Source: Planotetraspora kaengkrachanensis
GTDB lineage: Bacteria; Actinomycetota; Actinomycetes; Streptosporangiales; Streptosporangiaceae
Direction: 5' to 3'
DNA length: 64,000 bases
Assembly: GCF_016862895.1 (NCBI RefSeq)
Contig: NZ_BONV01000004.1
Location: 1-64,000, forward strand
Positions 7,648-63,492 of this stretch are shown piece by piece. The stretch's first letter is position 1; every line of letters begins with the position of its first letter. Both the position numbers and the translations under genes were made by a program. The notes beneath the pieces were generated by a model. The model was not told the DNA's origin and did no database searches. It saw only the letters and a list, made by a program, of their open reading frames with translations.

Positions 7648-8031
7648 ATGGAGATCAGGGAAGCGGCACGCCGCTTCGTCCGCACGTGGGAGCGGGGCTG
7701 GGCGTCGCACGACGTCGAGCTGATCCTCTCCTTGTACGCCGAGGACTGCCGGCATCGCTCGATGCCGTTCCGTCCCGTCCATCGCGGCCGGCAGGAGCTG
7801 GCCGACTACATCCGATGGTCGTTCGAGGACGAGCGGGTCGAGAGCGTCCGCTTCGGCGATCCGCTCGTCGATGGCGACACGGCGGTGGCCGAGTTCGTCG
7901 TCCTGTCGTCAGAGGACGGCGGGCCGGTGACGCTGGCCGGCTGCGTGATCGTACGGTTCGACCCTGCCGGGTTCGCCGTGGAGTCGCGTGACTACTGGCA
8001 TGTCGCCCAGGGCCATGTGAGCCTCGGCTGA
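7648..8031 (+). CDS. SnoaL-like / NTF2-like protein
   Basis: A 127-residue single-domain protein with the alpha+beta-barrel pattern of SnoaL-like/NTF2 proteins: an N-terminal helix (AARRFVRTWERGWASHDVE), the LYAEDCRHRSMPF turn, and a beta-rich C-terminal half. These proteins are small-molecule isomerases, hydrolases or ligand-binding proteins. Active-site residues vary too much to predict a reaction. The ribosome-binding site is GGAGG ten bases before the ATG. It lies 16 bp after the NUDIX gene, so cotranscription is likely. Confidence 0.75.
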   Translation: MEIREAARRFVRTWERGWASHDVELILSLYAEDCRHRSMPFRPVHRGRQELADYIRWSFEDERVESVRFGDPLVDGDTAVAEFVVLSSEDGGPVTLAGCVIVRFDPAGFAVESRDYWHVAQGHVSLG

Positions 8032-8104
8032 CGGCCGTCCTCGATTAAGGACGCGTTCTCGCGGAATAGGCGGGGGGGAACGGTCGTGATTGGACGAGGA
8101 CGGG

Positions 8105-8338
8105 ATGACGATGGACGACGCGGAGATCAGGGACCAGTTGCAGGAAGTGGAGACGGAGCTGGTCAGGCTGCGGGAGAGCGCCGCGGAAATCCGGCGGGAG
8201 ATCGGCGAGCGCTGGGACGCTCCGACGGACGCCGCGGAGATGGCGACGGTGATCACCAACGCCGAGCAGCAGGAGGCGCTGATCGAGACGCTCGAGGCCA
8301 GACGCGAGCGGCTGCGGCAACGACTCGGCACGTCCTGA
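8105..8338 (+). CDS. Small coiled-coil protein
   Basis: A 77-residue, highly charged protein predicted to be almost wholly helical. Heptads are seen in EIRDQLQEVETELVRLRES and again in EALIETLEARRERLRQRL. No cysteine and no membrane segment. The ATG at 8105 follows GAGGACGGG; a TTG at 8090 or an ATG at 8111 are alternatives. Small proteins of this kind occur in many actinobacteria without known function. It could be a dimerising structural or adaptor protein. Confidence 0.6.
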   Translation: MTMDDAEIRDQLQEVETELVRLRESAAEIRREIGERWDAPTDAAEMATVITNAEQQEALIETLEARRERLRQRLGTS

Positions 8339-8396
8339 CACGGTCTGCGGATCGCCTTCTTCGCCGGACCTCCTCCGTCTTCGGACTACCTCGCCT

Positions 8397-8433
8397 ATAG
8401 TTTCGCTGAAGATACTATCTCTAGCGATACTAT
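8397..8433. promoter_or_regulatory. GATACTAT direct repeats upstream of the DUF234 ATPase
   Basis: GATACTAT occurs at 8411-8418 and 8426-8433, 15 bp apart, with a related inverted piece TATAGT at 8397-8402. The block ends 10 bp before the ATG of the ATPase gene and is strikingly AT-rich for this genome. It could be a promoter -10 region combined with a repressor site. Confidence 0.35.
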
Positions 8434-8442
8434 TGGGGACGG

Positions 8443-9855
8443 ATGAGCGCCTTCGTGGGGCGAGAGGCCGAGCTCGCGTCGTTGCAAATCCTCCTAGACC
8501 GGGTCACGGCAGAGATCGGTGGCGCGCGCCCGGGGCGATGCGTGCTCATGCGCGGACGCAGGCGCATCGGGAAATCGGCGCTGACCGAGGAGTTCGTGAG
8601 CCGTAGCGGCCTCACGAACCTCTACTTCACCGCCGCACGTGGCAGCGCCGAACAGGAACTCGGACAACTGCGCGCCGATGTGGCGGGTTCGCCGCTTCCG
8701 CATCGGGATGTGTTCGAGGACGCCGCTCCCGCGAACTGGAACAGTGCGCTCCAGATGCTCGCGGACGTGGTTCCGGACGACGCACCGTCGATCCTGGTGA
8801 TCGACGAGGTGCCTTACCTGATGGAGCGGGTCGACGGATTCGAAGGAGCGCTTCAGCGCGCGTGGGATCGCTTTCTCAGCCGGAAGCCGGTGCTGCTGAT
8901 CCTGATCGGATCGGATCTGTCGATGATGGAGGCTCTCAACAGCTACGAGCGGCCGTTCCACCAGAGGGGGACGGAGATGGTGGTGAAGCCGCTCAACCCC
9001 GCGGAGATCCAGACGATGTTGCATCTGGATGCGGCGACGGCCTTCGACGCCGCGCTGGTCACCGGAGGTCTGCCGCTGATCTGCGCGGAGTGGTCGCCGG
9101 GAGCCTCGCTCTGGCAATTTCTGCACAGCGCGCTGACCAACCCCCTCTCGGCGCTGCTCGTCTCGGCGGAGAGGTCTCAGGCCGCGGAGTTTCCCGATTA
9201 CGCGATGGCCAGGGACGTGCTGGGAGCCATCGGGACCGGTGAGCGGACCTTCACCAACATCGCCAGAGCCGCGGGTGGCATCTCCCATTCGACCCTCACC
9301 AGGGCGGCCGACGTCCTGGACGCCAAAGGCGTGGTGACCTCGGAGCTGCCCCTTTCGACCCGCCCGTCGAAGGAGCGCCGCTACCGGATCAGTGATCCCT
9401 ACCTCCGGTTCTGGTTCTACTTCCTCCGGCCGCACATGCCGGAGATCGAACGGCGCCGCGGGGATCTCACCCTCCGGCGGATCGCCGAGCGGTGGAGCGC
9501 ATGGCGCGGACGGGCGATCGAGCCGATTGTGCGTGAGTCGCTGGCAAGGCACTTGCCCGGAGAATCGCTGCCGGAGGCCGGCGCTATCGGCTCCTACTGG
9601 ACGCGGAGCAACGACGTGGAGATCGACATCGTCGGCGCCGACCGCGGGCCGATCGCGAAAGAGATCGTGTTCGCCGGATCGATCAAGTGGCTGGAGAGCG
9701 CGTTCGATGACCACGACTTCCAGAAGCTGATCAGACATCGGGCCGTGCTCACGGATCGCCCCGTCCCGCTGGTGATCGTCTCGCGTAACGGTGCCTCCTG
9801 CAGCGGGGCGGCCGCCGTCCTCGGCCCGAAGGAACTTGTCGCCGCCTGGCGCTGA
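8443..9855 (+). CDS. AAA-type ATPase with DUF234-like C-terminal domain
   Basis: A 470-residue cytosolic P-loop ATPase of the family first noted in archaea. It has a Walker A motif GRRRIGKS near residue 38 and a Walker B ILVIDEVPYL near residue 125. A winged-helix-like region (TFTNIARAAGGISHSTLTRA) follows. The C-terminal domain includes RYRISDPYLRFWFYF and a restriction-endonuclease-like stretch with EIDIVGADRG and a later KEIVFAGSIKW. Such proteins are often annotated simply as ATP-binding proteins; the nuclease-like fold of the C-terminus is an inference from the D...K spacing. The start follows GGGGACGG. It stands alone between a small coiled-coil gene and the convergent rhaB. Confidence 0.8.
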   Translation: MSAFVGREAELASLQILLDRVTAEIGGARPGRCVLMRGRRRIGKSALTEEFVSRSGLTNLYFTAARGSAEQELGQLRADVAGSPLPHRDVFEDAAPANWNSALQMLADVVPDDAPSILVIDEVPYLMERVDGFEGALQRAWDRFLSRKPVLLILIGSDLSMMEALNSYERPFHQRGTEMVVKPLNPAEIQTMLHLDAATAFDAALVTGGLPLICAEWSPGASLWQFLHSALTNPLSALLVSAERSQAAEFPDYAMARDVLGAIGTGERTFTNIARAAGGISHSTLTRAADVLDAKGVVTSELPLSTRPSKERRYRISDPYLRFWFYFLRPHMPEIERRRGDLTLRRIAERWSAWRGRAIEPIVRESLARHLPGESLPEAGAIGSYWTRSNDVEIDIVGADRGPIAKEIVFAGSIKWLESAFDDHDFQKLIRHRAVLTDRPVPLVIVSRNGASCSGAAAVLGPKELVAAWR

Positions 9856-51323: not shown

Positions 51324-51440
51324 GGTTTTCCGGGTCGATCTTCGTGACCGGCCCCGGATTCACGGAGCCCCGACGGCTCGTTTTCCCCGCGTATCGGAGC
51401 CTGTCGCCTGATCCGGAAGGCCGGGTGTCCGAGGATTCAC

Positions 51441-52418: not shown

Positions 52419-52829
52419 ATGGATGATGCACGGGTTCAGCCGGATGGAGCGACGGGACCTGTCCCGGTGCGTCGAGGGCTGAGAGTCATGGCCGCCTGGT
52501 ACGCGGGAGCTTTTGCGGTGGCGATGGCAGTCGTCATTCTATTTTTGTTGGCAGGGGCGGCTGACCAGCCTGAACCGTTCCGGTCGTGTACTGCTAAAAC
52601 GCTGGAGTGCTGGACGACGTCCAGAACAGACATCTTCATATTCGCCGTGATTGTTGGTGTGCTGCTCCTGCTCGCCAGTCTGCCTGGATCGCTGGTGGCG
52701 TTGGCCGTCATGACGGTGAGTCGGGTGCGCTCGGCGATGGTCACCGGTACGGTGGCCGCTTTCGCCGGGTGGTTATCCTGCGCGTTGGGTGTGCTGTGGA
52801 TCGGGGGAGTAGGCGTTCCTTGGCTATAG
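52419..52829 (+). CDS. Small membrane protein
   Basis: A 136-residue protein with four likely membrane segments: AWYAGAFAVAMAVVILFLL, IFIFAVIVGVLLLLASL, LVALAVMTVSRV and VAAFAGWLSCALGVLWIGG. A short extracytoplasmic loop has a possible Cys pair (SCTAKTLECW). No family recognised. The ATG at 52419 (MDDARVQPDG) is chosen over one six codons earlier. Its stop overlaps the stop of the convergent pentapeptide gene by six bases. Confidence 0.55.
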   Translation: MDDARVQPDGATGPVPVRRGLRVMAAWYAGAFAVAMAVVILFLLAGAADQPEPFRSCTAKTLECWTTSRTDIFIFAVIVGVLLLLASLPGSLVALAVMTVSRVRSAMVTGTVAAFAGWLSCALGVLWIGGVGVPWL

Positions 52830-53771
52830 AACGTCCACTCCATCGAAACGTGCGTCAAGCAGGTTGGCGCCCGCGAGCGTCAGGTCGGTGACCTTCGCCC
52901 CTTCGAAGATGGCGGTGGCCGCGTTCGCGCCGGTGAGGTCGGCTCGTGTGAGATCGGCTCTCCAGAGGTTCGCCCCGGACAGGTCCGCCTTCTTCAGGTC
53001 GGCGTCCGCGAGGTTGGCCTGGGCGAGATCCGCTCCATGGAGGCGGGCGCCTGCGAGGTCGGCACCTGCCAGGTCTGCTTCGGCCAGGTCGATGCGGCGG
53101 CCTTGAGCGTCATTTTCGACTGTACGGCGGCCGATGACTGTGAGTGCTGCTTGGACGTCGGCTCGAAGCCTGGGGCGACCCCGGAGGTGTGCCGCTTGCT
53201 CAACCCCCGGTCGACCGCCGGCAACGGGAGCGCGCGTGGGCGTGGCCAGAGGTGGGGGATCGCGTATGAACGCGGTGAGTACCTCCATCACCGTGGGGTG
53301 GTCACGGGCCGAATCGCGGGCGATGCGTTCCAGGGCGTAGATGCCGCCCAGCCGGACGGCCAGCTCGCTTGACCCGAGTTGCTCGATCGCTCTGGTGTAC
53401 CGATCCGTCAGGTGACCTTCCTCGCTCAGCGCGAGTTGACGCTGCCCCACTTCGTAGGTGCGCCGGGTGGTCTCGGCGTTTCGAGCGGTGTAATACACAG
53501 CCACCAGCGCCGCCAATCCGGTGGTGACGGTCAACGCCCGCCCTCGTATCGCGTCCAGAGCTTCCGCCCGGTCCTTGCCCACCAAACCGGTGACGCCATC
53601 GATGGACTCCAGCACCCAGGCCGCTCCCGGCCCAAGAATCCACACCAGCACTACCAGCAGGACCAAGCCCGCCACGGCCAAGGCTGCCCTGGGCTGCTTT
53701 TGCAGGGCGGCCTTTATCAGCAAGATGCTCTTCGGCACCAAAGCCAGCAGTTGTGCCGCTCGTTGTCGCAC
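52824..53771 (-). CDS. Pentapeptide repeat membrane protein
   Basis: A 315-residue protein. Two N-terminal membrane helices occur near residues 28-48 and 80-95. A conserved linker (HLTDRYTRAIEQLGS, RLGGIYALERIARDS, HPTVMEVLTAFIRD) follows. The C-terminus of about 85 residues is made of A(D/N)LxX pentapeptides (ADLAGADLAGARLHG, ADLSGANLWRADLTRADLTG) that stack into a right-handed beta helix. This architecture is common in streptomycetes; a role in protein docking is likely but unknown. The GTG at 53771 is the best start; upstream in-frame codons read through mobile-element relic sequence. Confidence 0.8.
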   Translation of the reverse strand: MRQRAAQLLALVPKSILLIKAALQKQPRAALAVAGLVLLVVLVWILGPGAAWVLESIDGVTGLVGKDRAEALDAIRGRALTVTTGLAALVAVYYTARNAETTRRTYEVGQRQLALSEEGHLTDRYTRAIEQLGSSELAVRLGGIYALERIARDSARDHPTVMEVLTAFIRDPPPLATPTRAPVAGGRPGVEQAAHLRGRPRLRADVQAALTVIGRRTVENDAQGRRIDLAEADLAGADLAGARLHGADLAQANLADADLKKADLSGANLWRADLTRADLTGANAATAIFEGAKVTDLTLAGANLLDARFDGVDVL

Positions 53772-53881
53772 GCCCCCACCGTGGCAGCAGCGCTCGGCGG
53801 CAGGAAAGGGCACAGCTGATACAAATGCGGTCCTGTTCACTCCCCTGTGGGCAGGCCTAGCCACCCAGGACATGACGCCTT

Positions 53882-54042
53882 CCCCTGGAAGAGATGTTCC
53901 GCCTCGTTGCCCACGGCAGCACGTCGACGACGGAAGCCGTCTACCGCAAGCAGATGCGCCCAGCTCTCCAAGCCGGAGCCCGTGGCCATGGACCGCATCC
54001 GACACACGCGATCAATGAGAGCGCGCACGCAAGGGCTGTTTC
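53882..54042 (+). pseudogene. Integrase C-terminal relic
   Basis: This stretch encodes PLEEMFRLVAHGSTSTT, EAVYRKQMRPALQAGA and then, one frame over, VAMDRIRHT. It is the last part of a tyrosine integrase like the intact one at 62335-63492, truncated at its left side and broken by a one-base insertion near 53973. The 39 bases 53917-53955 match 63396-63434 with a single difference. AAGGGCTGTTTC follows in both (54031-54042 and 63544-63555). It is evidence of an earlier, related element at this locus. Confidence 0.85.
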
Positions 54043-54089
54043 AATTCTTCGTGAATGGGCGCTTATCGCTACTGCCTTATGCTCCCCAC

Positions 54090-54974
54090 GTGCCGAATCG
54101 ATTTGATCTCCACTCCGAGCTCGCCGCCGGCGTGCAGGACAAGGACAGCGCCTGGACGTTCATACGGCGCTTCGCGGAAGCCTGGATGACTCCACTCGGA
54201 GACGGAGACGGCTACTCGGAGGAGGAGCTGAACGCCGCTGAAGATCGGCTAGGTCTCAAGCTCCCCGCCGCCTTGCGGGAGGCATACATGCTCTTCGGCC
54301 GACGTGACAACCTGTGCCGGACCATGCACCGTCTCGAGTCCCCTGCTGAGCTTCATGTGGACGAGGACGCCGGACTGCTCGTCTACCACGTGGAGAACTC
54401 AGGGGTATGGGTGTGTGGCATCCGGCTCACCGATCTCGGTCTTGAAGATCCGCCCGTGGTTCACCTGCCCGGCTGTGGTGCCAATGATCATCCATGGACC
54501 GGAATCACATGGTTGGACAGGCTCTCCAGCGACTGCATCGAGATCGTGTTGACCGAGGCTCTCTGGAATGTTGAGAGCCGTCCGTACTGCACAAACGGCC
54601 ATGTCAGCAACGATGACAACCCCCTCAGCATGCACGGCGAATTGCTCGCGGAGGACATCGCCGAACTGGATCACCGATTCACGCCGCTGGCGCTTCCGCC
54701 GTACCCCGTCGAGCGGTGGGAATGCACCCCCGGAAGCCGCTGGTACGCGGGCGAAGACGTGATCTTATGCCTGGACCTCTTCGTTGACCTGGGCGAGCAC
54801 GAGTACATGCGTGGGCCGTGGGACCGGCCATGGAGCCGAGCCGGTCTCAGCATTCGCGGCAGAACTCCTGAGGCCATCAACGCGATGTGTGAGAGTCTGC
54901 CCAAAGAGTGGTTCCACTGGGAGTGGCGGCAGCCGTGGGATCCGTATCCTCCGAAGCCGCAGGCACCCAGTTAG
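54090..54974 (+). CDS. SUKH (SMI1/KNR4)-like protein
   Basis: A 294-residue cytosolic protein. After a helical lead (FDLHSELAAGVQDKDSAWTF) comes a SUKH-type core (YSEEELNAAEDRLGLKLPAAL, then REAYMLFGRRDNLC), the sign of the SMI1/KNR4 superfamily, known as immunity proteins against nuclease and other toxins and in other roles. The rest is beta-rich with many Trp. No toxin gene is adjacent. GTG at 54090 (start of PNRFDLHSEL) is preferred since homologous N-termini begin there; GTG 54051 or ATG 54015 would only add sequence continuous with the integrase relic. It lies between that relic and the tRNA scar. Confidence 0.65.
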   Translation: MPNRFDLHSELAAGVQDKDSAWTFIRRFAEAWMTPLGDGDGYSEEELNAAEDRLGLKLPAALREAYMLFGRRDNLCRTMHRLESPAELHVDEDAGLLVYHVENSGVWVCGIRLTDLGLEDPPVVHLPGCGANDHPWTGITWLDRLSSDCIEIVLTEALWNVESRPYCTNGHVSNDDNPLSMHGELLAEDIAELDHRFTPLALPPYPVERWECTPGSRWYAGEDVILCLDLFVDLGEHEYMRGPWDRPWSRAGLSIRGRTPEAINAMCESLPKEWFHWEWRQPWDPYPPKPQAPS

Positions 54975-54991
54975 TTCCCAGAACATGAAGA

Positions 54992-55020
54992 AGGCCGGTT
55001 CCGGCGATCGGAACCGGCCT
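54992..55020. terminator. Bidirectional-looking terminator next to the tRNA fragment
   Basis: An 11-bp perfect stem AGGCCGGTTCC (54992-55002) with GGAACCGGCCT (55010-55020) and a 7-nt loop. On the minus strand it lies 20 bp after the tRNA-Pro 3' end, where a tRNA terminator belongs. On the plus strand it closes the SUKH-like gene. Confidence 0.75.
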
Positions 55021-55039
55021 CTCAGCTGGTACTTCTGGG

Positions 55040-55081
55040 TCGGGGTGGCGGGATTTGAACCCACGGCCTCTTCGTCCCGAA
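55040..55081 (-). other. 3' fragment of tRNA-Pro(CGG), probable attachment scar
   Basis: On the minus strand the sequence runs from the anticodon loop TTCGGGA through CGAAG, the variable region, the T arm GTGGG-TTCAAAT-CCCGC and the acceptor strand CACCCCGA. That is the 3' half of a tRNA-Pro with anticodon CGG. The 5' half (acceptor CGGGGTG, D arm and the 5' anticodon stem) is absent; unrelated sequence abuts the loop. Anticodon loop to 3' end is the typical core of attachment sites for tyrosine integrases of actinomycete elements. Not a functional tRNA. Confidence 0.85.
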
Positions 55082-55236: not shown

Positions 55237-55482
55237 CTACTCGGCTTCGTCCTTGGGCTTCACGAAGGTACCGCGCCCCTGGATCGCGATCACTAGCCCT
55301 TCTTCGCGAAGGATCGCGATGGCCTTCCGGACCGTGTCTCGGCCGACCTCGTGGATCTGCATAAGCCGTGACTCTGCGGGGATGGGCCGGTTCGGCCGGA
55401 GCTCGCCGCGCTCGATCTGCCCGCGTAGGAGATTCGCGAGCTGCTTGTAGACGGGCAATGCGCCGTCATGATCGATCGTCAC
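55237..55482 (-). CDS. Short GntR-type DNA-binding protein
   Basis: An 81-residue protein consisting of only a GntR winged helix (YKQLANLLRGQIERGELRPN, then LMQIHEVGRDTVRKAIAILREEGL, then IQGRGTFVKP), with no effector domain. The recognition region resembles the N-terminus of the full-length GntR regulator at 59669, suggesting relatedness. The GTG at 55482 is chosen (TIDHDGALPVYKQ follows). It is divergent from two small genes of the element. It could be a stand-alone repressor or antagonist of the larger regulator. Confidence 0.7.
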   Translation of the reverse strand: MTIDHDGALPVYKQLANLLRGQIERGELRPNRPIPAESRLMQIHEVGRDTVRKAIAILREEGLVIAIQGRGTFVKPKDEAE

Positions 55483-55543
55483 GGCAACCGACCGTAAATG
55501 TCCCCCACCGTGGCCCATCGCTCGCCTACGTCCGCAAACATAT

Positions 55544-55555
55544 GCAGACATCTGC
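55544..55555. promoter_or_regulatory. Inverted repeat between divergent small GntR gene and element genes
   Basis: GCAGA-CA-TCTGC is a perfect inverted repeat with a two-base centre. It lies between the starts at 55482 and 55580 and is a candidate operator for the small GntR protein. Confidence 0.5.
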
Positions 55556-56641: not shown

Positions 56642-57004
56642 GTGAGTCAGAGCGGTTCTCAAGCAGCGGCGTTCTTTCGCGATGTTCCCGTGAAAGGTGA
56701 GGTGTGGACGATCCGGGACGAGGGCGGTTATCCGGCACCGTTGGTTGCTCCTGACCGGAGAAGCATGCCGTTCTGGTCATCAAGGTCACGCGTCATAAAG
56801 ATCATTAAGAACGTGGCTACGTATGCGGGATTCGAGCCGGTGGCGATCTCACTTGATGTCTGGGTGGGTGACTGGCTACCGGAGCTCAGTCAGGACAACA
56901 TGCTTGTCGGCATCAACTGGTCGGGAACCCGCGTCGTTGGCTGGGACTTCGAAGTTCCCGAGGTAATCGCCAGACTGAACGCAGCGTCTACGCATCAGCC
57001 CTAG
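56642..57004 (+). CDS. DUF2750-like protein
   Basis: A 120-residue protein matching the DUF2750 pattern: AAAFFRDVPVKGEVWTIRDE, PLVAPDRRSMPFWSSRSRV, KNVATYAGFEPVAISLDVW and LVGINWSGTRVVGWDFE. DUF2750 proteins are widespread small proteins of unknown role, often on islands near toxin-immunity genes. The GTG start is the only one available near the conserved region. The spacer of about 250 bp before it holds no clear gene. Confidence 0.7.
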   Translation: MSQSGSQAAAFFRDVPVKGEVWTIRDEGGYPAPLVAPDRRSMPFWSSRSRVIKIIKNVATYAGFEPVAISLDVWVGDWLPELSQDNMLVGINWSGTRVVGWDFEVPEVIARLNAASTHQP

Positions 57005-57422: not shown

Positions 57423-59525
57423 CTATCCAGGCAGCATACGAGTATCGCCTGGATCCTTTTTATCAAGAGCGTGATCGATATTGCCATCATTGGTTGGATT
57501 AGTATCGCTCACCTCGCCATCGCGGATCACTTTTCCGGGAATTGCCTTTTTGACTGCGTCGGAAAGTAATCCAGGATTACTAAAATCTAGATATGCGAAT
57601 GCTTGTTCGATTGACGGATCGTGGTTGAAGTGGTCCTTGAAGTAATGCAACCGATCGCGACAATCTTCAATGAGCTCCGACCAGGTCTTAACCCATACTT
57701 TCACCCGTGTCGGCCCATCTGCGTAGTCCAGAACGCATCCGGATGGCCGGCCCTGTTGGCGCGCCTCGGCACGGACGAGGCCATTCATTTTACTCGTGAT
57801 CAACCAAAATTCCCAGTTTACCGTAACATCGGTGAACTGCGGATCTTCGGCTACTGCCAATGCGTAACTCTTGATCTGTGACAGCTCTTTATCGCCAACA
57901 ATGACCTTGGGAGCCTTTAGCTCCACTATGAGATGCTGCAGGCGTCCGTTCTCGCGCTGTGAGCGTGAAAGCATTAGGTCGACAATTCCCACTGAGCCAT
58001 CTTCCCTGCGTACTGGTGATGGCGTACGTACCCGTCGGCCTAGCTTCTTAAGATGGCGATCAAGGACAGCGTCTAGTGATCGATCACTTACGAGTAGTCC
58101 GTAGTGTTCTCCAAAGATCCACGTTTCGTTTTCGAGGATTTTGTGGAGCTCCGTCCGCTCCTTGACTCGGCTAGAAGCTTCCGGATCGAAGACAAGATGT
58201 TCGAGCATGCGCAGGAAATCGAGTCGGTCCGCAACGTTGTTAGCCGCCTTGATCAGGCTCGCGAGGCTCGTCCGATCCAACAGCCTCGACAGCTCTTTTT
58301 TGTCGTCCGAACTTAGCCTAAAGATTTCATCAAGCACCTTATGTGTATGCTCAGGCTGATGACGGACCGTTTCTCGGAGCAAGGCCAATGTGATCTTCTG
58401 TTGCCTCTTAGTGCGTGGGATATGGCGGCTTATGGTTGCAGCCACCGTATCGAACGTTTCCCGCTCGAGTAGCTCCGCATCGTTCTCTGGCGCGCTCTTA
58501 TAAGGGTAGACATCGTCGGCCTTCCATTGCTCGACTAGCTCTGCCCTGCGCTCCCTAATGCGTTCCCTGAAGTGCTCCCTGAGCTCAACTCTGGCGGCCC
58601 CGACCAGTGCACCAACGGGCGTCGTCGTGTCATCTGCCAGGACGAAGGTGCCAATATGATCAGGGACCCCGGACCAGAGAACGTATGCCGTAAACTCGAA
58701 CCCTGGCGCCTTAATCCCCATATCAATAATATCCATGGAGACGCCATTTTCATCACACAAGTGAAGTTCGCGGCTGACTTTCATTTTCCATTCGATGATG
58801 CGAACTTCTGCAGAGTGCTGAATGTCGTCAAAGGTAAATGAGAAGGAGCGCTTAGTGTCCTTCTGTATGGCCGACTCAGGCTCTACCCGTTTGCCGTCGT
58901 AGACGACAGAGATCTTTGGATAGCGAATCAAGTACGGCCCAAGCTCGGTGATTATCTTATTTACGGCATTTTCGGTCAAGAGGGAGTCGAGACGAGTGTC
59001 TTGCCGACCCCATGCCTCAAAGACTGTACCAGTGGGGTCGATTGTCGGCTCAGGGTCCGAGATTATGAAGTCGTTGCGAGCATCACTTGATGCCGATACT
59101 ACAGTTTTGAGCCTTTTGCCAGTTGCGTCCGTGGCGACCGTAGTCCACCTGATCTGTGATCCGAGTGCATAGCCGCGTAGACGCCCCTGGCCGTTTCGTC
59201 CATGGAGAGGTCGCTGTTCTAAAATTGACCGCTTTGTTGTCGGCTTCCATGATCCGCCAATGCGATCAAACGTCGATGCGCAAGATTCTGGGGATATTCC
59301 GGATCCATCGTCGGAGATGATTATTCGATCTGTGCCCGTAAGTTCTGAACGATGGATCTCGATTGAGACATTATTCGCGTCCGCGTCCAAAGAATTCCAA
59401 ATGAACTCTTTTACGGCACCGATCGGATCGCGCTCGTGCGCGAGTCGCTCTACATGATCCTCTGCCGCTTCAAGGTGAACCCGTCGCATATGGACATAGT
59501 GCTTCGGCTTTTTCGGGCAGGCCAT
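57423..59525 (-). CDS. GHKL ATPase fused to PD-(D/E)XK (Shedu-like) nuclease, candidate defence protein
   Basis: A 700-residue protein. Residues 20-130 are a GHKL/HSP90-type ATPase with an N-box (KEFIWNSLDADA: Glu40, Asn44, Asp47), a G1 motif (SDDGSGI, Asp72-73) and GRNGQG (109-114). A mixed middle region follows (about 140-460). The C-terminal nuclease has WIFGEHY (469-475), Asp516 (GIVDLML), Glu535 and Lys537 (VELKAP), and Gln550/Lys552 (QIKSYALA). This matches PD-(D/E)XK proteins of the DUF4263/Shedu kind. Codon use is visibly AT-richer than in neighbours, a sign of transfer. There is no clear ribosome-binding site. An anti-phage role is inference from domains and location on a mobile element. 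Confidence 0.75.
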   Translation of the reverse strand: MACPKKPKHYVHMRRVHLEAAEDHVERLAHERDPIGAVKEFIWNSLDADANNVSIEIHRSELTGTDRIIISDDGSGISPESCASTFDRIGGSWKPTTKRSILEQRPLHGRNGQGRLRGYALGSQIRWTTVATDATGKRLKTVVSASSDARNDFIISDPEPTIDPTGTVFEAWGRQDTRLDSLLTENAVNKIITELGPYLIRYPKISVVYDGKRVEPESAIQKDTKRSFSFTFDDIQHSAEVRIIEWKMKVSRELHLCDENGVSMDIIDMGIKAPGFEFTAYVLWSGVPDHIGTFVLADDTTTPVGALVGAARVELREHFRERIRERRAELVEQWKADDVYPYKSAPENDAELLERETFDTVAATISRHIPRTKRQQKITLALLRETVRHQPEHTHKVLDEIFRLSSDDKKELSRLLDRTSLASLIKAANNVADRLDFLRMLEHLVFDPEASSRVKERTELHKILENETWIFGEHYGLLVSDRSLDAVLDRHLKKLGRRVRTPSPVRREDGSVGIVDLMLSRSQRENGRLQHLIVELKAPKVIVGDKELSQIKSYALAVAEDPQFTDVTVNWEFWLITSKMNGLVRAEARQQGRPSGCVLDYADGPTRVKVWVKTWSELIEDCRDRLHYFKDHFNHDPSIEQAFAYLDFSNPGLLSDAVKKAIPGKVIRDGEVSDTNPTNDGNIDHALDKKDPGDTRMLPG

Positions 59526-59668: not shown

Positions 59669-60538
59669 TTAAATCACGAGGTCGATGCCGTTGTCTCTGA
59701 GTTCCTGCGGTGTCAGGTCGATGGTGGGCTCGTCGGCAAGCTCTGCGTGGTAGCCGATCTCGTAGCGATTCGCAGGCGCTTTGACCTCGGTGACCTCAAT
59801 GGGCCGGCCGTTGGCGTGGGCCATGGTGCGGCGGATGATCAGCAGTGCTTCGGCGTAGTCCATCGCCAGCAGGGTGCGTTCGTCTTCGTAGGCGATGCGG
59901 GCGGTGGTGAGGGTCATCCATCGGATGGGGCCGTGTTCGCGGATGAGTGATTGGTAGAAGAACCCGGCGCGTTTGCGGTACTGGTCGTGGCGCTTTGGGT
60001 TGTCCCAGTCGGGGAGCATGTCGGCGTTGGTGTAGGAGTTGATCTCCAGTCGGGCGGATGCGCCGTGGATGACGGCGGTGTGGCCTCGGTGCCACATGCT
60101 GCGGCGGTGGATGACGGGGTGTCCGGGCCGGACGCCGAGGATGATCGCGGTATCGCGGTTGGCGCTGATCTTCTCGTCGGTGAACAGCGGGGCGTCGGGG
60201 TCGGCGTCGCGCATGGCGAGGTCCCACCCGAACTCTTGGACGTCGGGGTGGTTGCCGGGGGCGGCGAGGTCGGGCCGCTTGCGGTCGGTGATGACGATTG
60301 TGCGGCGTTCGGGCATGGGGCGGACGAATGAGCCGCGTCCGCGCATGACGTAGGCGAGTCCTTCGGAGACCAGGGTGTCGATGGCCTTGCGGACGGTGGG
60401 GCGGGAGACGTCGTACTTCCTGACGAGTTCGGGTTCGCTGGGCAGTGCGCCGCCGGGCGGGTAGCGGCCGTCCAGGATCGCGGTGCGCAGGTCGGTGGTG
60501 ATGACGCGCCAGATGGCGTCCTTCTCGTCGGTCTCCAT
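59669..60538 (-). CDS. KorSA-like GntR regulator (HutC/UTRA type)
   Basis: A 289-residue regulator: winged helix (VITTDLRTAILDGRYPPGG, ELVRKYDVSRPTVRKAIDTL, GRGSFVRP) and a C-terminal UTRA ligand domain (IHRRSMWHRGHTAVIHGA, MTLTTARIAYEDERTLL). In pSAM2-type elements such a repressor (KorSA) silences replication and excision genes. It is divergent from the replication gene with operator repeats between them. GAAGGGAAGG before the ATG at 60538 fixes the start. Confidence 0.85.
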   Translation of the reverse strand: METDEKDAIWRVITTDLRTAILDGRYPPGGALPSEPELVRKYDVSRPTVRKAIDTLVSEGLAYVMRGRGSFVRPMPERRTIVITDRKRPDLAAPGNHPDVQEFGWDLAMRDADPDAPLFTDEKISANRDTAIILGVRPGHPVIHRRSMWHRGHTAVIHGASARLEINSYTNADMLPDWDNPKRHDQYRKRAGFFYQSLIREHGPIRWMTLTTARIAYEDERTLLAMDYAEALLIIRRTMAHANGRPIEVTEVKAPANRYEIGYHAELADEPTIDLTPQELRDNGIDLVI

Positions 60539-60572
60539 GACCTTCCCTTCCGAACATTTTCTCAGCACTACT

Positions 60573-60627: not shown

Positions 60628-60656
60628 CTGCGATCGTGGGAAGGTGGTGGTTGATC

Positions 60657-62132
60657 ATGAACGCTGGCAACGAACACCCGGAATGGATGACCGACCTCGT
60701 GCGGGTCGTCAACGCGCCGGGCTACCAACGATGGCGGCAGATGGTCGCCGCAACAGGCGGCTGCGCCCACCCGATCCACCTCACCGGCGACTCGACCATC
60801 GTCGACGCGAGCACGGGCGAGGCGCTGCACACCTACACCACCACCGACGAACCCGGCGGGCACCTCCTCGTCGCCTGCGGCAACCGGCGCGCATCGGTCT
60901 GCCCGGCCTGCTCGGAGGTCTACCGCGCCGACACCTTCCATCTCATCCGCGCGGGCCTGTCCGGCGGCAAAGGGATACCGGAGACGGTCAGCGCTCATCC
61001 GCGGGCGTTCGTCACACTGACTGCGCCGTCCTTCGGGCCGGTCCACACCCGGCGCGAGACAAGCGGGACCGTGCGGGCCTGCCGTCCCCGCAACCGGGAC
61101 CGCACATGTGAACACGGGCGGCCGGTCGGCTGCCACACCCGACATGAGCCGCAGGACGACCGATTGGGTCAGCCCATCTGCCCGGACTGCTATGACTACA
61201 TCGGGGCCGTGTTGTGGCAGGCACACGCAGGCGTGCTGTGGCACCGCTTCACCCTGGCCATGCGTCAAGAGCTGGCCGCCCAGGCAGGGATGAGCCGCCG
61301 CACGTTCGGCAAACAGATGCGGGTCTCCTTCGCCAAGGTCGCCGAGTATCAGCGGCGCGGCCTGGTCCACTTTCACGCGATCATCCGCCTGGACGGCCCC
61401 GAGGGGGCGCACGAGCCACCTCCCGACTGGGCCGATCACGACCTGCTGGTCCGTGCGATCCCTCCCGCCGTCAAACGGGTGTCGGTGAAGTCACCGGTCA
61501 GCGAGTTGGGCCGGCGGGTGCTGCGGTGGGGTGATCAGCTCGACATCCGTCCCGTTCTGCTCGATCCCACGGCTGAGGGGCTGAGCGAACAGGCGGTCGC
61601 GGGCTATATCGCCAAGTACGCCACCAAGGGCGCGGAAGCCTCCGGCACCGTGGACCACCGGCTGTCCTGCTCGGTCTGCGGCGGCCGTGGACGCGTGAGC
61701 GTCCTGGCCCCCTGCGAACGCTGCCACGGCACCGGTCTCAAACCCGGACTGCTCCTGGACGCGCTCCCCGTCACCGATCATGCCCGGCGCATGATCCGCA
61801 CCTGCTGGGACCTCGGCGCACGACCGGAGTTCAGCACCCTGCGACTACGGCCCTGGGCGCACATGCTCGGCTTCCGGGGCCACTTCTCCACCAAGAGCCG
61901 CGCCTACTCGGTCAAGCTCGGAGACCTGCGCGGCGCTCGCTCCCTGCACCGGGCCGCGCAAGCACGTGAACGGTACGGCCTACCCGCCCTCGGCGACGCC
62001 ACAACCCTCGTTCTCGGTCACTGGCGCTTCGCCGGGATCGGCCACACCCCCGGCGAAGCAGTCATGGCCGAACACATCCGCCAACGCGTCCAAACCGCCC
62101 GGCACATCGCGGCAGAACGCGAGCCCGAATGA
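60657..62132 (+). CDS. Rolling-circle replication initiator, RepSA-like
   Basis: A 491-residue replication protein. Motifs: a zinc-type pair CPACSEVY near residue 80, HUH motif in GLVHFHAIIRLDG, catalytic-Tyr region YIAKYATKGAEA, and a DnaJ-like four-Cys zinc stretch (CSVCGGRGR, CERCHGTG). These match initiators of actinomycete integrative elements that nick the origin and drive rolling-circle copying after excision. The ATG at 60657 is preferred to the GTG at 60636. Its stop overlaps the start of the excisionase gene. Confidence 0.87.
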   Translation: MNAGNEHPEWMTDLVRVVNAPGYQRWRQMVAATGGCAHPIHLTGDSTIVDASTGEALHTYTTTDEPGGHLLVACGNRRASVCPACSEVYRADTFHLIRAGLSGGKGIPETVSAHPRAFVTLTAPSFGPVHTRRETSGTVRACRPRNRDRTCEHGRPVGCHTRHEPQDDRLGQPICPDCYDYIGAVLWQAHAGVLWHRFTLAMRQELAAQAGMSRRTFGKQMRVSFAKVAEYQRRGLVHFHAIIRLDGPEGAHEPPPDWADHDLLVRAIPPAVKRVSVKSPVSELGRRVLRWGDQLDIRPVLLDPTAEGLSEQAVAGYIAKYATKGAEASGTVDHRLSCSVCGGRGRVSVLAPCERCHGTGLKPGLLLDALPVTDHARRMIRTCWDLGARPEFSTLRLRPWAHMLGFRGHFSTKSRAYSVKLGDLRGARSLHRAAQARERYGLPALGDATTLVLGHWRFAGIGHTPGEAVMAEHIRQRVQTARHIAAEREPE

Positions 62133-62338
62133 AGCCAACCGACCAGTCCGACGATCGTCGGCTCTACCGCGTCAGCGACGCCATGCGCCTGCTCAGCCTG
62201 AGCCGCACGGTGATCTACGAACAGATCAGATCGGGCCGTCTGCGCTCGGTCACCCAAGGCCGCGCCCGGCTCATCCCGGCCTCGGCCATCACCGAATACA
62301 TCTCCCTACTGGAACAGGAGGCGAGGAAAGCATCATGA
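62129..62338 (+). CDS. xis: Excisionase (helix-turn-helix)
   Basis: A 69-residue basic DNA-binding protein with a MerR-like helix-turn-helix (YRVSDAMRLLSLSRTVIYEQIRSG) and a wing (LRSVTQGRARLIP). Xis proteins direct the integrase towards excision. It is joined by ATGA overlaps to both the rep and int genes, so the three are one transcriptional and translational unit controlled by the Kor-like regulator. Confidence 0.88.
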   Translation: MKPTDQSDDRRLYRVSDAMRLLSLSRTVIYEQIRSGRLRSVTQGRARLIPASAITEYISLLEQEARKAS

Positions 62339-63492
62339 CCACTCGGCGTAGCAGGGGAGACGGCGGTCTGCACTGGGACGAACAGAGGGAGCGCTGGATC
62401 GCCTCCGTAACGGTCGGCTATACGCCCGCTGGCAAGCGCATCGTGAAGAAGGCCAGCGGCAAGACCAAGACCGAGGCCAAGACCAAGCTCAAAGAGATCA
62501 TCCGCGACTACGAAGACGGCTTGGCCATTGCTCCGGCGGACTACACGGTTGAGCGCGCCGTGAACGACTGGCTGGCCTACGGGCTGAGTGGGCGGGACAA
62601 GGGCACCGTCACCGCCTGCACGATTCTGAGCAACACTCACATCATCCCTGCGCTGGGCGCTCGGAAGCTTCGGGATCTCAGCGCGGAAGACGTGGACAAG
62701 TGGCTAGCAGACAAGGCGAAAAGCCTGAGCACTCGCACCCTTCAGGGGCTTCACTCGTGCCTGAATCGGGCGATCAAGCGGGCGATGGCGCGCGACAAGG
62801 TCAAGCGGAATGTGGTGGCGCTCTGCTCGGTCCCTAAAGGGAAGGCGGGTCGCCCGTCGAAGGCTCTTACTTTGGCTCAGGCGGAGGCTGTACTGGAGGC
62901 AGCCGAGGGTTCTCGGATGTACGCCTACATCGTCCTGTCGTTGCTCACTGGCGCGAGGACGGAAGAACTCAGGGCGCTGACGTGGGATCACGTGGATACG
63001 GAAGGTGACCCGAGCGCCACGCCGCCCATACCGCCCCACGTGGCCGTCTGGCGGTCGGTGCGGGCCGGCGGCGACACCAAGACCCGCAAATCCCGCCGGA
63101 CCCTCGCCTTGTCCAAGCGCTGTATGGACGCACTACAGCGGCAGAGGGAGCAGCAGGAAAGGGAGAGGGAGATCGCGGGGGAGAACTGGCAGGAAAGCGG
63201 CCTGGTGTTCGCGTCCAAGGTAGGGACACCGCTCGATCCCTCGCACGTCCGGCGAGACTTCCGCAATGCGATCAAGACCGCGCAAGGCGTGGACCCGGCC
63301 GAGTGGACGCCACGGGAGCTCCGGCACAGCTTCGTCTCGCTGCTCTCGGACAACGGCATCCCGTTGGAGGAGATCTCCCGTCTTGTCGGCCACAGCAGTA
63401 CGTCGACGACGGAAGCCGTCTACCGCAAGCAGATCCGACCAGTCCTCCAGGCTGGTGCAGTTGCTATGGATCGAATCTTCCGGGAGGAGTAG
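62335..63492 (+). CDS. int: Tyrosine recombinase (integrase)
   Basis: A 385-residue site-specific recombinase. An AP2-like arm-binding start (GGLHWDEQRERWIASVTVGY) and a core-binding domain (AVNDWLAYGLSGRDKGT) precede the catalytic domain. The catalytic domain has Arg (LLTGARTEEL), Lys-bearing segment (TKTRKSRRTLAL), His-x-x-Arg (ELRHSFVS), His (LVGHSSTS) and nucleophile Tyr (EAVYRKQ). It inserts the element, by inference at tRNA-Pro. ATG 62335 overlaps the xis stop; longer upstream frames are shadows of the rep gene. A relic of a related integrase lies at 53.9 kb. Confidence 0.92.
   Translation: MTTRRSRGDGGLHWDEQRERWIASVTVGYTPAGKRIVKKASGKTKTEAKTKLKEIIRDYEDGLAIAPADYTVERAVNDWLAYGLSGRDKGTVTACTILSNTHIIPALGARKLRDLSAEDVDKWLADKAKSLSTRTLQGLHSCLNRAIKRAMARDKVKRNVVALCSVPKGKAGRPSKALTLAQAEAVLEAAEGSRMYAYIVLSLLTGARTEELRALTWDHVDTEGDPSATPPIPPHVAVWRSVRAGGDTKTRKSRRTLALSKRCMDALQRQREQQEREREIAGENWQESGLVFASKVGTPLDPSHVRRDFRNAIKTAQGVDPAEWTPRELRHSFVSLLSDNGIPLEEISRLVGHSSTSTTEAVYRKQIRPVLQAGAVAMDRIFREE

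What the first reader, a model, noticed from the sequence alone, without database searches (positions are those of the whole stretch)
57423..59525. GHKL ATPase-Shedu-like nuclease fusion on a mobile element: candidate anti-phage system
One 700-residue protein carries an HSP90-type ATPase with all nucleotide motifs and a C-terminal PD-(D/E)XK nuclease with WIFG, D, ExK and QxK positions as in DUF4263/Shedu proteins. The gene is AT-richer than its surroundings and sits among accessory genes of an integrative element, a typical place for defence genes. Known Shedu systems are single-gene nucleases; the ATPase could gate the nuclease.
Basis: partly seen in the sequence, partly recalled or inferred. 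Interest (0 to 1): 0.75.

Follow-up and report, generated by a model that had tools for sequence, protein, structure and literature searches.

The report
MORC-like ATPase fused to Shedu-like nuclease
A soil actinobacterium carries, on a small mobile element, one protein that joins an ATP-driven clamp to a DNA-cutting domain; it is very probably an anti-phage system of a kind already described in other bacteria, and so a good new example rather than a new kind of defence.

Summary
The 700-aa minus-strand ORF at 57423-59525 has a GHKL ATPase (HATPase_c_3 8e-17) with a MORC-like fold (VIA Z 19.7) and a C-terminal PD-(D/E)XK nuclease; E40, N44, D72, E456, D516, E535, K537 and Q550 are invariant in 24 of 24 aligned relatives. 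Pfam SduA_C does not recognise the nuclease (0 of 24; HSDR_N_2 weakly matches 22), but profile-profile comparison favours Shedu (96.7%; HSDR_N_2 77%, Mrr 0.8%), and Shedu structures head the fold list at Z 9.9, tied with N.BspD6I. The gene is the largest cargo of a 9,476-bp element in tRNA-Pro(CGG) with 95-bp att repeats, RepSA and integrase but no tra gene; 0 of 4 other genomes of the genus have it, and two show an empty site. The architecture is known: paraMORC3 (2008) and VcSduA, tested anti-phage, 'Shedu type I-D' (PMC12137116). So: a new member of a known kind, probably an ATP-gated anti-phage nuclease. More surprising on the side: four Asanoa species keep a relative without the ExK motif while its ATPase stays under purifying selection.

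The parts
57423..59525 (-). gene for the 700-aa GHKL ATPase / PD-(D/E)XK nuclease fusion
   Evidence: ORF; relatives; model (pLDDT 89.3)
59109..59420 (-). GHKL (Bergerat) ATPase core, residues 36-139; the MORC-like ATPase plus S5 region reaches about residue 327
   Evidence: Pfam HATPase_c_3 7.9e-17; VIA MORC3 5ix2_B Z 19.7 over residues 19-326; motif residues invariant
57627..58160 (-). Shedu-like PD-(D/E)XK nuclease domain, residues 456-633
   Evidence: hhalign to SduA_C proteins 96.3-96.7%; VIA EcSduA 8ps4_A and Bc Shedu 8ti9_C Z 9.9, tied with N.BspD6I 9.5
57915..57980 (-). catalytic stretch D516 ... E535-x-K537
   Evidence: 24 of 24 in A1
59669..60568 (-). GntR/UTRA regulator, same strand, 143 bp upstream of the fusion gene; possible operon partner (inference)
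   Evidence: Pfam GntR 6e-18, UTRA 4.8e-8; spacer read
60636..62132 (+). RepSA rolling-circle replication initiator of the pSAM2 type
   Evidence: Pfam RepSA 1.7e-166, 2.4e-166 six-frame
62129..62338 (+). HTH_17 protein, excisionase-like by position and domain (inference)
   Evidence: Pfam HTH_17 4.9e-10
61966..63492 (+). tyrosine integrase ORF (true start probably inside, at the Met of MTTRRSRGDGG)
   Evidence: Pfam Phage_integrase 1.2e-22
55237..55551 (-). second, small GntR-type regulator of the element
   Evidence: Pfam GntR 1.9e-17
56642..57004 (+). DUF2750 protein, accessory gene beside the fusion gene
   Evidence: Pfam DUF2750 1.8e-19
54987..55081 (.). left att repeat: copy of the 3' part of tRNA-Pro(CGG) plus the downstream hairpin; the right copy is at contig 64368-64462, outside the window
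   Evidence: 95 bp, 97.9%, 76-bp exact core; tRNA

Best explanation
It is a single-gene anti-invader nuclease of the GHKL/Shedu kind (paraMORC3; 'Shedu type I-D'), carried as cargo by a small integrative element. Shown by computation: a GHKL plus S5 ATPase most like MORC proteins; a helical middle; a Shedu-like PD-(D/E)XK nuclease with an intact E-D-ExK-Q site; conservation of both active sites; horizontal mobility; and restriction-modification neighbours in some relatives. Inferred: ATP binding closes an N-terminal dimer clamp on DNA, as in MORC and MutL. Capture of an invader feature (DNA ends are what EcSduA senses) releases or positions the two C-terminal nuclease domains, which cut the phage DNA. 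ATP hydrolysis resets the clamp. The GntR protein just upstream may keep expression low, because such nucleases can be toxic.
For: Both active sites are invariant in 24 of 24 aligned relatives. The MORC2/3 ATPase is the best fold match, Z 19.7 over residues 19-327. The C-terminal profile against SduA_C proteins gives 96.3% (all 12) and 96.7% (8 of them), with the WIFG, D and ExK positions in register; HSDR_N_2 gives 77% and Mrr 0.8%; the GHKL and middle parts of the protein give 0.2% and 0.4%. The four top fold rows for the C-terminus are Shedu structures. The same architecture in V. cholerae is anti-phage, and both the ATPase (E27A) and the nuclease (K557A) mutant lose activity (PMC12137116, passages). 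Relatives lie beside or near a type I RM operon in Streptomyces and Arthrobacter, a type ISP RM gene in Phaeobacter, Drt2, dcm and LlaMI in Psychrobacter, and among tail genes of a Pasteurella phage record. RM-type genes lie near 12 of 80 loci against 0 of 40 control stretches (biased, see against). The gene is absent in 4 of 4 other genomes of the genus and two show an empty site.
Against: Pfam SduA_C scores none of 24 relatives, while Pfam HSDR_N_2 scores 22 of 24 at E<=0.1 (best 3.1e-6), so plain HMMs point to another nuclease family of the same superfamily. PADLOC SduA scores only 2 of 24, weakly. One subset of 4 SduA_C proteins matches at only 46%. Foldseek gives no PDB match at E<=0.001 for the C-terminus and ranks Shedu 16th at E 0.16. 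N.BspD6I is tied with Shedu by VIA (Z 9.5 against 9.9). I had no VcSduA sequence to align; its E27-K557 spacing (530) is longer than here (497), than the 24 rows of A1 (495-508) and than the 61 rows of A2 (at most 528). The RM-neighbour test is biased: the HsdM, HsdS and HsdR references come from L050, itself one of the 80 loci (11 of 79 without it), the other references come from other relatives' neighbourhoods, 7 of the 12 loci are one Streptomyces / [Kitasatospora] papulosa type I arrangement, and the controls come from 9 genomes of one family. The window element itself showed no other defence gene among the ORFs scanned.
Confidence: 0.8

Rival explanations
1. Exclusion of competing mobile elements: the same nuclease, but its main use is to protect the element's tRNA-Pro niche, or the cell, against other AICEs, plasmids or conjugative DNA rather than against phage.
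For: It is the largest cargo of a tra-less integrative element. The tRNA-Pro site is a hotspot: an integrase C-terminus remnant lies left of the left att, G104 holds integrase fragments 90-96% identical, and G104 and G077 have extra att-like copies. Relatives occur on plasmids (45 of 72,556 records).
Against: The only tested relative known to me restricts phages and leaves the host alive (PMC12137116). Relatives also sit in chromosomal RM clusters and in phage records.
Confidence: 0.25
2. A conventional restriction subunit: the fusion needs an unlinked methylase or helicase partner and cuts unmodified DNA, as Iyer et al. proposed for MORC and paraMORC proteins in RM operons.
For: BbrUII/HgiDII restriction enzymes share a related ATPase (NCBIfam 1e-11; PADLOC REase_II 3e-8). 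HSDR_N_2 weakly matches the nuclease in 22 of 24 relatives. RM-type genes lie near 12 of 80 loci (with the bias told above).
Against: No methylase or helicase was found among the ORFs of the element scanned by Pfam. In Streptosporangiaceae the gene travels with otherwise unrelated flanks. VcSduA works without GrwAB or another partner gene (PMC12137116).
Confidence: 0.1
3. A MutL-like DNA repair or chromosome-structure protein, not defence.
For: The ATPase region scores with MutL (NCBIfam 3e-10; A1 profile against PDB MutL 9n2k 3.6e-9). Asanoa keeps a nuclease-less relative at a largely conserved locus.
Against: Patchy presence (13 of 200 same-family genomes with a near-complete copy, own genome included), mobile-element setting, and a tree that groups the window protein with Asanoa (Micromonosporaceae) rather than with the other Streptosporangiaceae copies.
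Confidence: 0.05

Closest known systems
VcSduA (Shedu type I-D), V. cholerae VSP-II (PMC12137116, passages read)
   Same: N-terminal GHKL ATPase plus C-terminal PD-(D/E)XK of the DUF4263/Shedu kind in one protein; single gene; on a genomic island; catalytic Glu of the ATPase and Lys of ExK present
   Different: Not aligned here (no sequence held); its E-to-K spacing is 530 against 497; host and element differ; activity shown there, not here
paraMORC3 family (Iyer, Abhiman, Aravind 2008, PMC2292703, parts 1-3 of 4 read)
   Same: GHKL plus S5 plus C-terminal restriction-endonuclease-fold domain with E-D-ExK; sporadic, mobile; some copies in RM operons, some alone
   Different: That paper calls it prevalent in proteobacteria and bacteroidetes and related the nuclease to RecB; here a large actinobacterial branch, with the nuclease nearest to Shedu by profile
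EcSduA (8ps4, 8ps5) and B. cereus Shedu (8ti8, 8ti9)
   Same: Nuclease domain fold (VIA Z 9.7-9.9) and active-site order
   Different: The architecture there is not a GHKL fusion (recalled; structure titles and PMC12904381 passages name no ATPase); Pfam SduA_C does not recognise the window protein; assembly not tested
MORC2/MORC3 ATPase modules (9cdh, 5ix2)
   Same: GHKL plus S5 fold over residues 19-327 (Z 19.7)
   Different: Eukaryotic chromatin factors without this nuclease
BbrUII/HgiDII family restriction enzymes (NF050001)
   Same: GHKL-type ATPase near the N-terminus (1e-11)
   Different: Far below the family cut-off (44 of 550 bits); only residues 38-135 match
AICEs of the pSAM2 type (PMC3218068, passages read)
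   Same: rep-xis-int-att order, RepSA, tyrosine integrase, att in a tRNA 3' end
   Different: No FtsK/SpoIIIE-type tra gene, so in that paper's terms a remnant AICE or mobilizable integrating element

Membership tests
paraMORC3 (GHKL-S5-RE-fold nuclease) | GHKL ATPase with intact nucleotide motifs | tested here: met
   HATPase_c_3 7.9e-17; E40, N44, D72, G74, G76, G109, G112, G114 invariant 24 of 24
paraMORC3 (GHKL-S5-RE-fold nuclease) | S5-fold domain after the GHKL domain | tested here: met
   VIA alignment to MORC2/3 spans residues 19-327, 281 aligned, rmsd 3.7-3.8, Z 19.7; that MORC modules hold an S5 fold is from PMC2292703
paraMORC3 (GHKL-S5-RE-fold nuclease) | C-terminal restriction-endonuclease-fold domain with E-D-ExK | tested here: met
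   E456, D516, E535, K537 invariant 24 of 24; PD-(D/E)XK enzymes head the fold list
Shedu (SduA) | recognised by the Pfam SduA_C/DUF4263 model (PF14082) | tested here: not met
   No match for the window protein at E<=1 and 0 of 24 relatives at E<=0.1, while HSDR_N_2 matches 22 of 24; six-frame search of the own genome 0 matches
Shedu (SduA) | homology to SduA_C proteins at profile level, active site in register | tested here: met
   hhalign 96.3% (all 12) and 96.7% (8-protein subset), but 46% with the other 4-protein subset; HSDR_N_2 77%, Mrr 0.8%; one-template E-values, not database-calibrated
Shedu (SduA) | nuclease domain fold of solved Shedu structures | tested here: inconclusive
   VIA Z 9.7-9.9 for 8ps4, 8ti9, 8ps5, 8ti8, but N.BspD6I tied at 9.5; Foldseek Shedu rank 16, E 0.16
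Shedu (SduA) | anti-phage activity dependent on the nuclease | not testable with these tools
   Needs plaque assays
Shedu type I-D (VcSduA) | GHKL ATPase N-terminal to a Shedu-like nuclease in one chain | tested here: met
   rests on the profile-level Shedu match, since the Pfam test was not met
Shedu type I-D (VcSduA) | direct sequence relation to VcSduA | not tested
   VcSduA sequence was not obtained; only text of PMC12137116 seen
AICE (pSAM2 type) | integrase and tRNA att sites | tested here: met
AICE (pSAM2 type) | RepSA/RepAM/Prim-Pol replication protein | tested here: met
   RepSA 2.4e-166
AICE (pSAM2 type) | FtsK/SpoIIIE-type tra gene | tested here: not met
   Six-frame search of the own genome: 5 matches, on C8, C29 and C67, none on C4

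The most novel reading that the evidence does not exclude
In this family the MORC-like ATPase is the invader sensor and DNA clamp and can work without the nuclease. In four Asanoa species a relative of the window protein (two of these are its nearest rows in the tree built here) has lost the ExK motif. Its ATPase keeps every motif checked and low dN/dS (0.13-0.22, against 0.41-0.61 for the nuclease part). That would be a bacterial case of a defence nuclease becoming a nuclease-free MORC-like ATPase, parallel to the proposed origin of eukaryotic MORCs. The window protein would then be an ATP-gated clamp that arms a Shedu nuclease.
Probability: 0.3. Interest if true: 0.6.

Novelty: new member of a known kind. 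Interest (0 to 1): 0.33.

Why it matters
It adds a well-delimited actinobacterial case to a defence kind that, in the papers I could see, has been tested once, in a proteobacterium, and shows it as cargo of a small integrative element with a clear att site and empty sites in two related genomes. It also shows that two standard models largely miss it (Pfam SduA_C 0 of 24, PADLOC SduA 2 of 24), so surveys that rely on them may undercount GHKL-type Shedu. The Asanoa relatives give a testable route to what the ATPase does by itself.

Tried and rejected
The first scan of genome contigs with the single sequence found 5 pattern stretches and no relative; the alignment query then found 454 of 478 (best 80 kept). 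A tblastx synteny picture was useless in GC-rich DNA because nearly every bin was filled; it was replaced by blastn on 24 loci with five references. PDB sequence searches with the protein (20 rows) and with A1 (46 rows) returned GHKL proteins only, no nuclease. Foldseek of the C-terminus gave no E<=0.001 match; VIA was used as the second look, and absences from its list are not taken as evidence. A plasmid search with the Pasteurella relative, meant to reach a Vibrio sequence, showed no Vibrio among its 48 records. The window's integrase or RepSA near other relatives: 1 of 80 and 0 of 80, so the pairing with this element type is not general. A core housekeeping role was rejected for Streptosporangiaceae.

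Rows dropped before counts: the split copy in G103 (L011/L042) was left out of A1. From 106 loci, 1 had no ORF hit, 18 were skipped (no start codon found or short match), and 87 were reduced to 60 at 80% identity. Among the skipped are the two loci most identical to the window protein, L069 (Paractinoplanes rishiriensis) and L115 (Micromonospora thermarum, cut by a contig end), both 53%, so they are not in A2 or the tree. Two of 14 SduA_C loci, one of 9 HSDR_N_2 loci and one of 15 Mrr loci (all near a contig end) were left out before hhalign. Three distant viral rows were left out of the tree.
Full report
WHAT IS THERE. The ORF at 57423-59525 (minus strand, ATG, 700 aa) is real. Pfam finds HATPase_c_3 at residues 36-139 (7.9e-17) and only a weak nuclease-type hit, HSDR_N_2, at 513-557 (0.015). 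NCBIfam and PADLOC give GHKL-type matches to BbrUII-like restriction enzymes and MutL over the ATPase, plus a weak PADLOC SduA match over 410-518 (7e-4). Gene GC is 0.524, the rest of the element inside the window 0.650, and the window left of the element 0.704.

CONSERVATION. Alignment A1 holds the window protein, 11 copies from same-family genomes and 12 from plasmid and phage records. ATPase residues E40, N44, D72, G74, G76, K94, G109, G112, G114 and nuclease residues E456, W469, F471, D516, E535, K537, Q550, Y554 are invariant in 24 of 24. In A2 (window plus 60 loci) E40, N44, D72, D516 and Q550 are 61 of 61, E456, E535 and K537 are 59 of 61; the exceptions are the two Asanoa rows.

FOLD. 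The full model has pLDDT 89.3 and pTM 0.68. The best solved structures by VIA are MORC3 5ix2_B and MORC2 9cdh_B, Z 19.7, 281 residues aligned, over residues 19-327; TRAP1/Hsp90, SMCHD1 and MutL follow at about 16-18. Residues 370-660 were modelled alone (pLDDT 91.1, pTM 0.86). VIA puts four Shedu entries first (8ps4_A Z 9.9, 172 aligned, 4.8 A; 8ti9_C Z 9.9, 145 aligned, 3.7 A, 17% identity; 8ps5_A 9.8; 8ti8_B 9.7), tied with N.BspD6I (9.5, 153 aligned, 3.4 A). Foldseek alone is weak: no E<=0.001, MspJI first at 2.5e-3, Shedu 8ti8_C 16th at 0.16.

IS THE NUCLEASE SHEDU-LIKE? By plain HMM, no: Pfam SduA_C scores 0 of 24 relatives at E<=0.1, while HSDR_N_2 scores 22 of 24 (best 3.1e-6), and PADLOC SduA scores 2 of 24 at E<=0.01. 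To test remote kinship I took SduA_C proteins from the same bacterial family (14 of 150 genomes; 12 used) and compared profiles. The C-terminal profile (residues 400-660, 61 rows) matches all 12 at 96.3% and an 8-protein subset at 96.7%, but the other 4-protein subset only at 46%. HSDR_N_2 (8 proteins) gives 77% and Mrr_cat (14 proteins) 0.8%. In a first run the C-terminus gave 95.6%, and the ATPase and middle parts 0.2% and 0.4%. The match includes the WIFG motif and the helix before it, the D and ExK positions, and the C-terminal 'KTWSELI' stretch against 'VTFDELL'. These are one-template E-values, not database-calibrated. My reading is a distant but fairly specific Shedu relative. I do not file it as a member of the Pfam-defined DUF4263 family; I file it as paraMORC3, a GHKL/Shedu-like fusion.

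THE ELEMENT. RepSA (60636-62132), an HTH_17 excisionase-like ORF (62129-62338) and a tyrosine integrase (61966-63492) stand in the order rep-xis-int. A 95-bp direct repeat at 97.9% (76 bp exact; maximum 13 bp in 296 random pairs) lies at 54987-55081 and at contig 64368-64462, the latter reaching into tRNA-Pro(CGG) at 64419-64494. The element is 9,476 bp. No FtsK/SpoIIIE match lies on this contig (5 matches in the genome, on C8, C29 and C67), so it is not a complete AICE. [quoted passage not shown] The fusion gene lies 143 bp downstream of a GntR/UTRA gene on the same strand. Of the 5 genomes held for the genus only the own one has the gene. G125 and G022 show an empty site: their sequence passes from the counterpart of contig position 51340 (G125) or 50297 (G022) to that of about 64350 within about 100 bp, so they lack the element and also the 3.6 or 4.7 kb left of it. 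G104 holds integrase fragments 90-96% identical, and G077 two att-like copies 3.7 kb apart. A 34-residue integrase C-terminus remnant at 53879-53980 suggests an older element at the same site.

RELATIVES. 19 of 200 same-family genomes match at E<=0.001. Of these 13, the own genome included, are near-complete (one of them, G103, split into two frames), 2 are C-terminal fragments and 4 match the ATPase only. Plasmids: 45 of 72,556 records. Phage records: 2 of 50,697, both Pasteurella. Genome contigs: 454 of 478 pattern stretches, best 80 kept. IMG/VR: 29 of 109, 26 loci. With L034 and L038 as references, DNA matches to the closely related Streptosporangiaceae (and Actinomadura) copies stop at the gene, except one further stretch of about 1 kb in L037; the more distant copies L041 and L043 share nothing at that setting. 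The Streptomyces copies L050, L055, L057 and L059, in contrast, share several kb of flank with each other. The tree puts the window protein with two Asanoa rows (97% SH-aLRT), away from the other Streptosporangiaceae copies (quick method; the two most identical loci, L069 and L115 at 53%, are not in it). In Streptomyces L050 the gene directly follows hsdM-hsdS-hsdR and a YgjP metallopeptidase gene; in Arthrobacter L045 the same hsdS-hsdR-YgjP set lies about 3 kb upstream. In Phaeobacter the gene overlaps a type ISP RM gene by 4 bp. On a Psychrobacter plasmid it lies near Drt2, dcm and LlaMI, in Bradyrhizobium near a helicase and an abortive-infection gene, and in phage record Pmp14 among tail genes. 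Other plasmid neighbourhoods show no defence gene that I recognise in the annotation (for example L028 among T4SS genes; L031). RM-type references hit 12 of 80 loci against 0 of 40 fixed-position control stretches from 9 same-family genomes (Fisher p 0.008). This test is biased: the Hsd references come from L050, one of the 80 (11 of 79 without it), the other references come from other relatives' neighbourhoods, and 7 of the 12 (L050, L051, L055, L057, L058, L059, L114) are one Streptomyces / [Kitasatospora] papulosa arrangement.

WHAT IS KNOWN. PMC2292703 (parts 1-3 of 4 read) defined paraMORC3 with a C-terminal RE-fold E-D-ExK domain. PMC12137116 (passages) reports VcSduA: GHKL plus DUF4263, protection against Drexlerviridae in E. 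coli and vibriophage X29 in V. cholerae, loss with E27A or K557A, homologues in about 1.2% of genomes, and the label type I-D after Gu et al. (that paper is not held). PMC12904381 (passages) summarises DNA-end sensing by EcSduA. Literature searches with Shedu, DUF4263, SduA, GHKL, MORC and paraMORC terms (lists capped at 20-30 rows) showed no title or abstract start on an actinobacterial member or on the Asanoa form; full texts were not read for that, and subscription papers are mostly not held.

MECHANISM. Shown: domains, motifs, mobility. Inferred: ATP-driven dimer clamp on DNA (from MORC/MutL likeness), nuclease gating (from VcSduA mutants), DNA-end or other invader sensing (from EcSduA). 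Confidence that it is an anti-invader nuclease of this kind is 0.8.

A SIDE RESULT. Four Asanoa species (L068, L072, L076, L077) hold relatives in which E535 is gapped in all four and K537 is gapped in three and Thr in one. E456 is Asp or Ser, D516 is kept, and Q550 is kept in three. All thirteen ATPase, S5 and helical positions checked are kept in all four. dN/dS (Nei-Gojobori) is 0.13-0.22 for the ATPase plus S5 part, 0.20-0.55 for the middle and 0.41-0.61 for the nuclease part, over six pairs. Right flanks are shared by all four and left flanks by three. Near the gene in L072 lie two methyltransferase, a carboxyl-transferase and a ketosynthase gene. This looks like domestication of the ATPase, but it is not the window gene, the gap placement depends on the alignment, and there is no functional evidence.

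Noticed in passing
L068, L072, L076, L077 (about 7960-9790 in each): Asanoa relatives that lost the ExK nuclease motif but keep an intact ATPase under purifying selection, at a largely syntenic locus; in L072 next to methyltransferase, carboxyl-transferase and ketosynthase genes.
   Followed up: partly
window 53879-53980, inside ORF 53847-54974 (+): 34-residue stretch 79% identical to the C-terminus of the element's integrase, left of the left att: probably the remnant of an older element at the same tRNA-Pro.
   Followed up: partly
L238 (G000:C54:50000-58280), RepSA at C54:57206-57772: A second, partial RepSA (90% identical) with an integrase C-terminus piece (80%) elsewhere in the same genome: probably a decayed sister element.
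   Followed up: partly
window 52824-54005 (-): Pentapeptide-repeat protein beside the element, within the stretch missing from G125 and G022.
   Followed up: no
L050 (104-9995) and L045 (27-9995); Hsd hits also in L051, L055, L057, L058, L059, L114: Type I RM operon followed by a YgjP-like metallopeptidase gene (Pfam-checked in L050 and L045 only) and then the GHKL-nuclease gene, directly in Streptomyces and about 3 kb on in Arthrobacter.
   Followed up: partly
L011/L042 (G103:C1:380950-382809): A copy of the fusion gene split into two reading frames, probably a decaying gene.
   Followed up: no
L069 and L115: The two loci most identical to the window protein (53%), in Paractinoplanes and Micromonospora, are interrupted or cut by a contig end and were not analysed further.
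   Followed up: no
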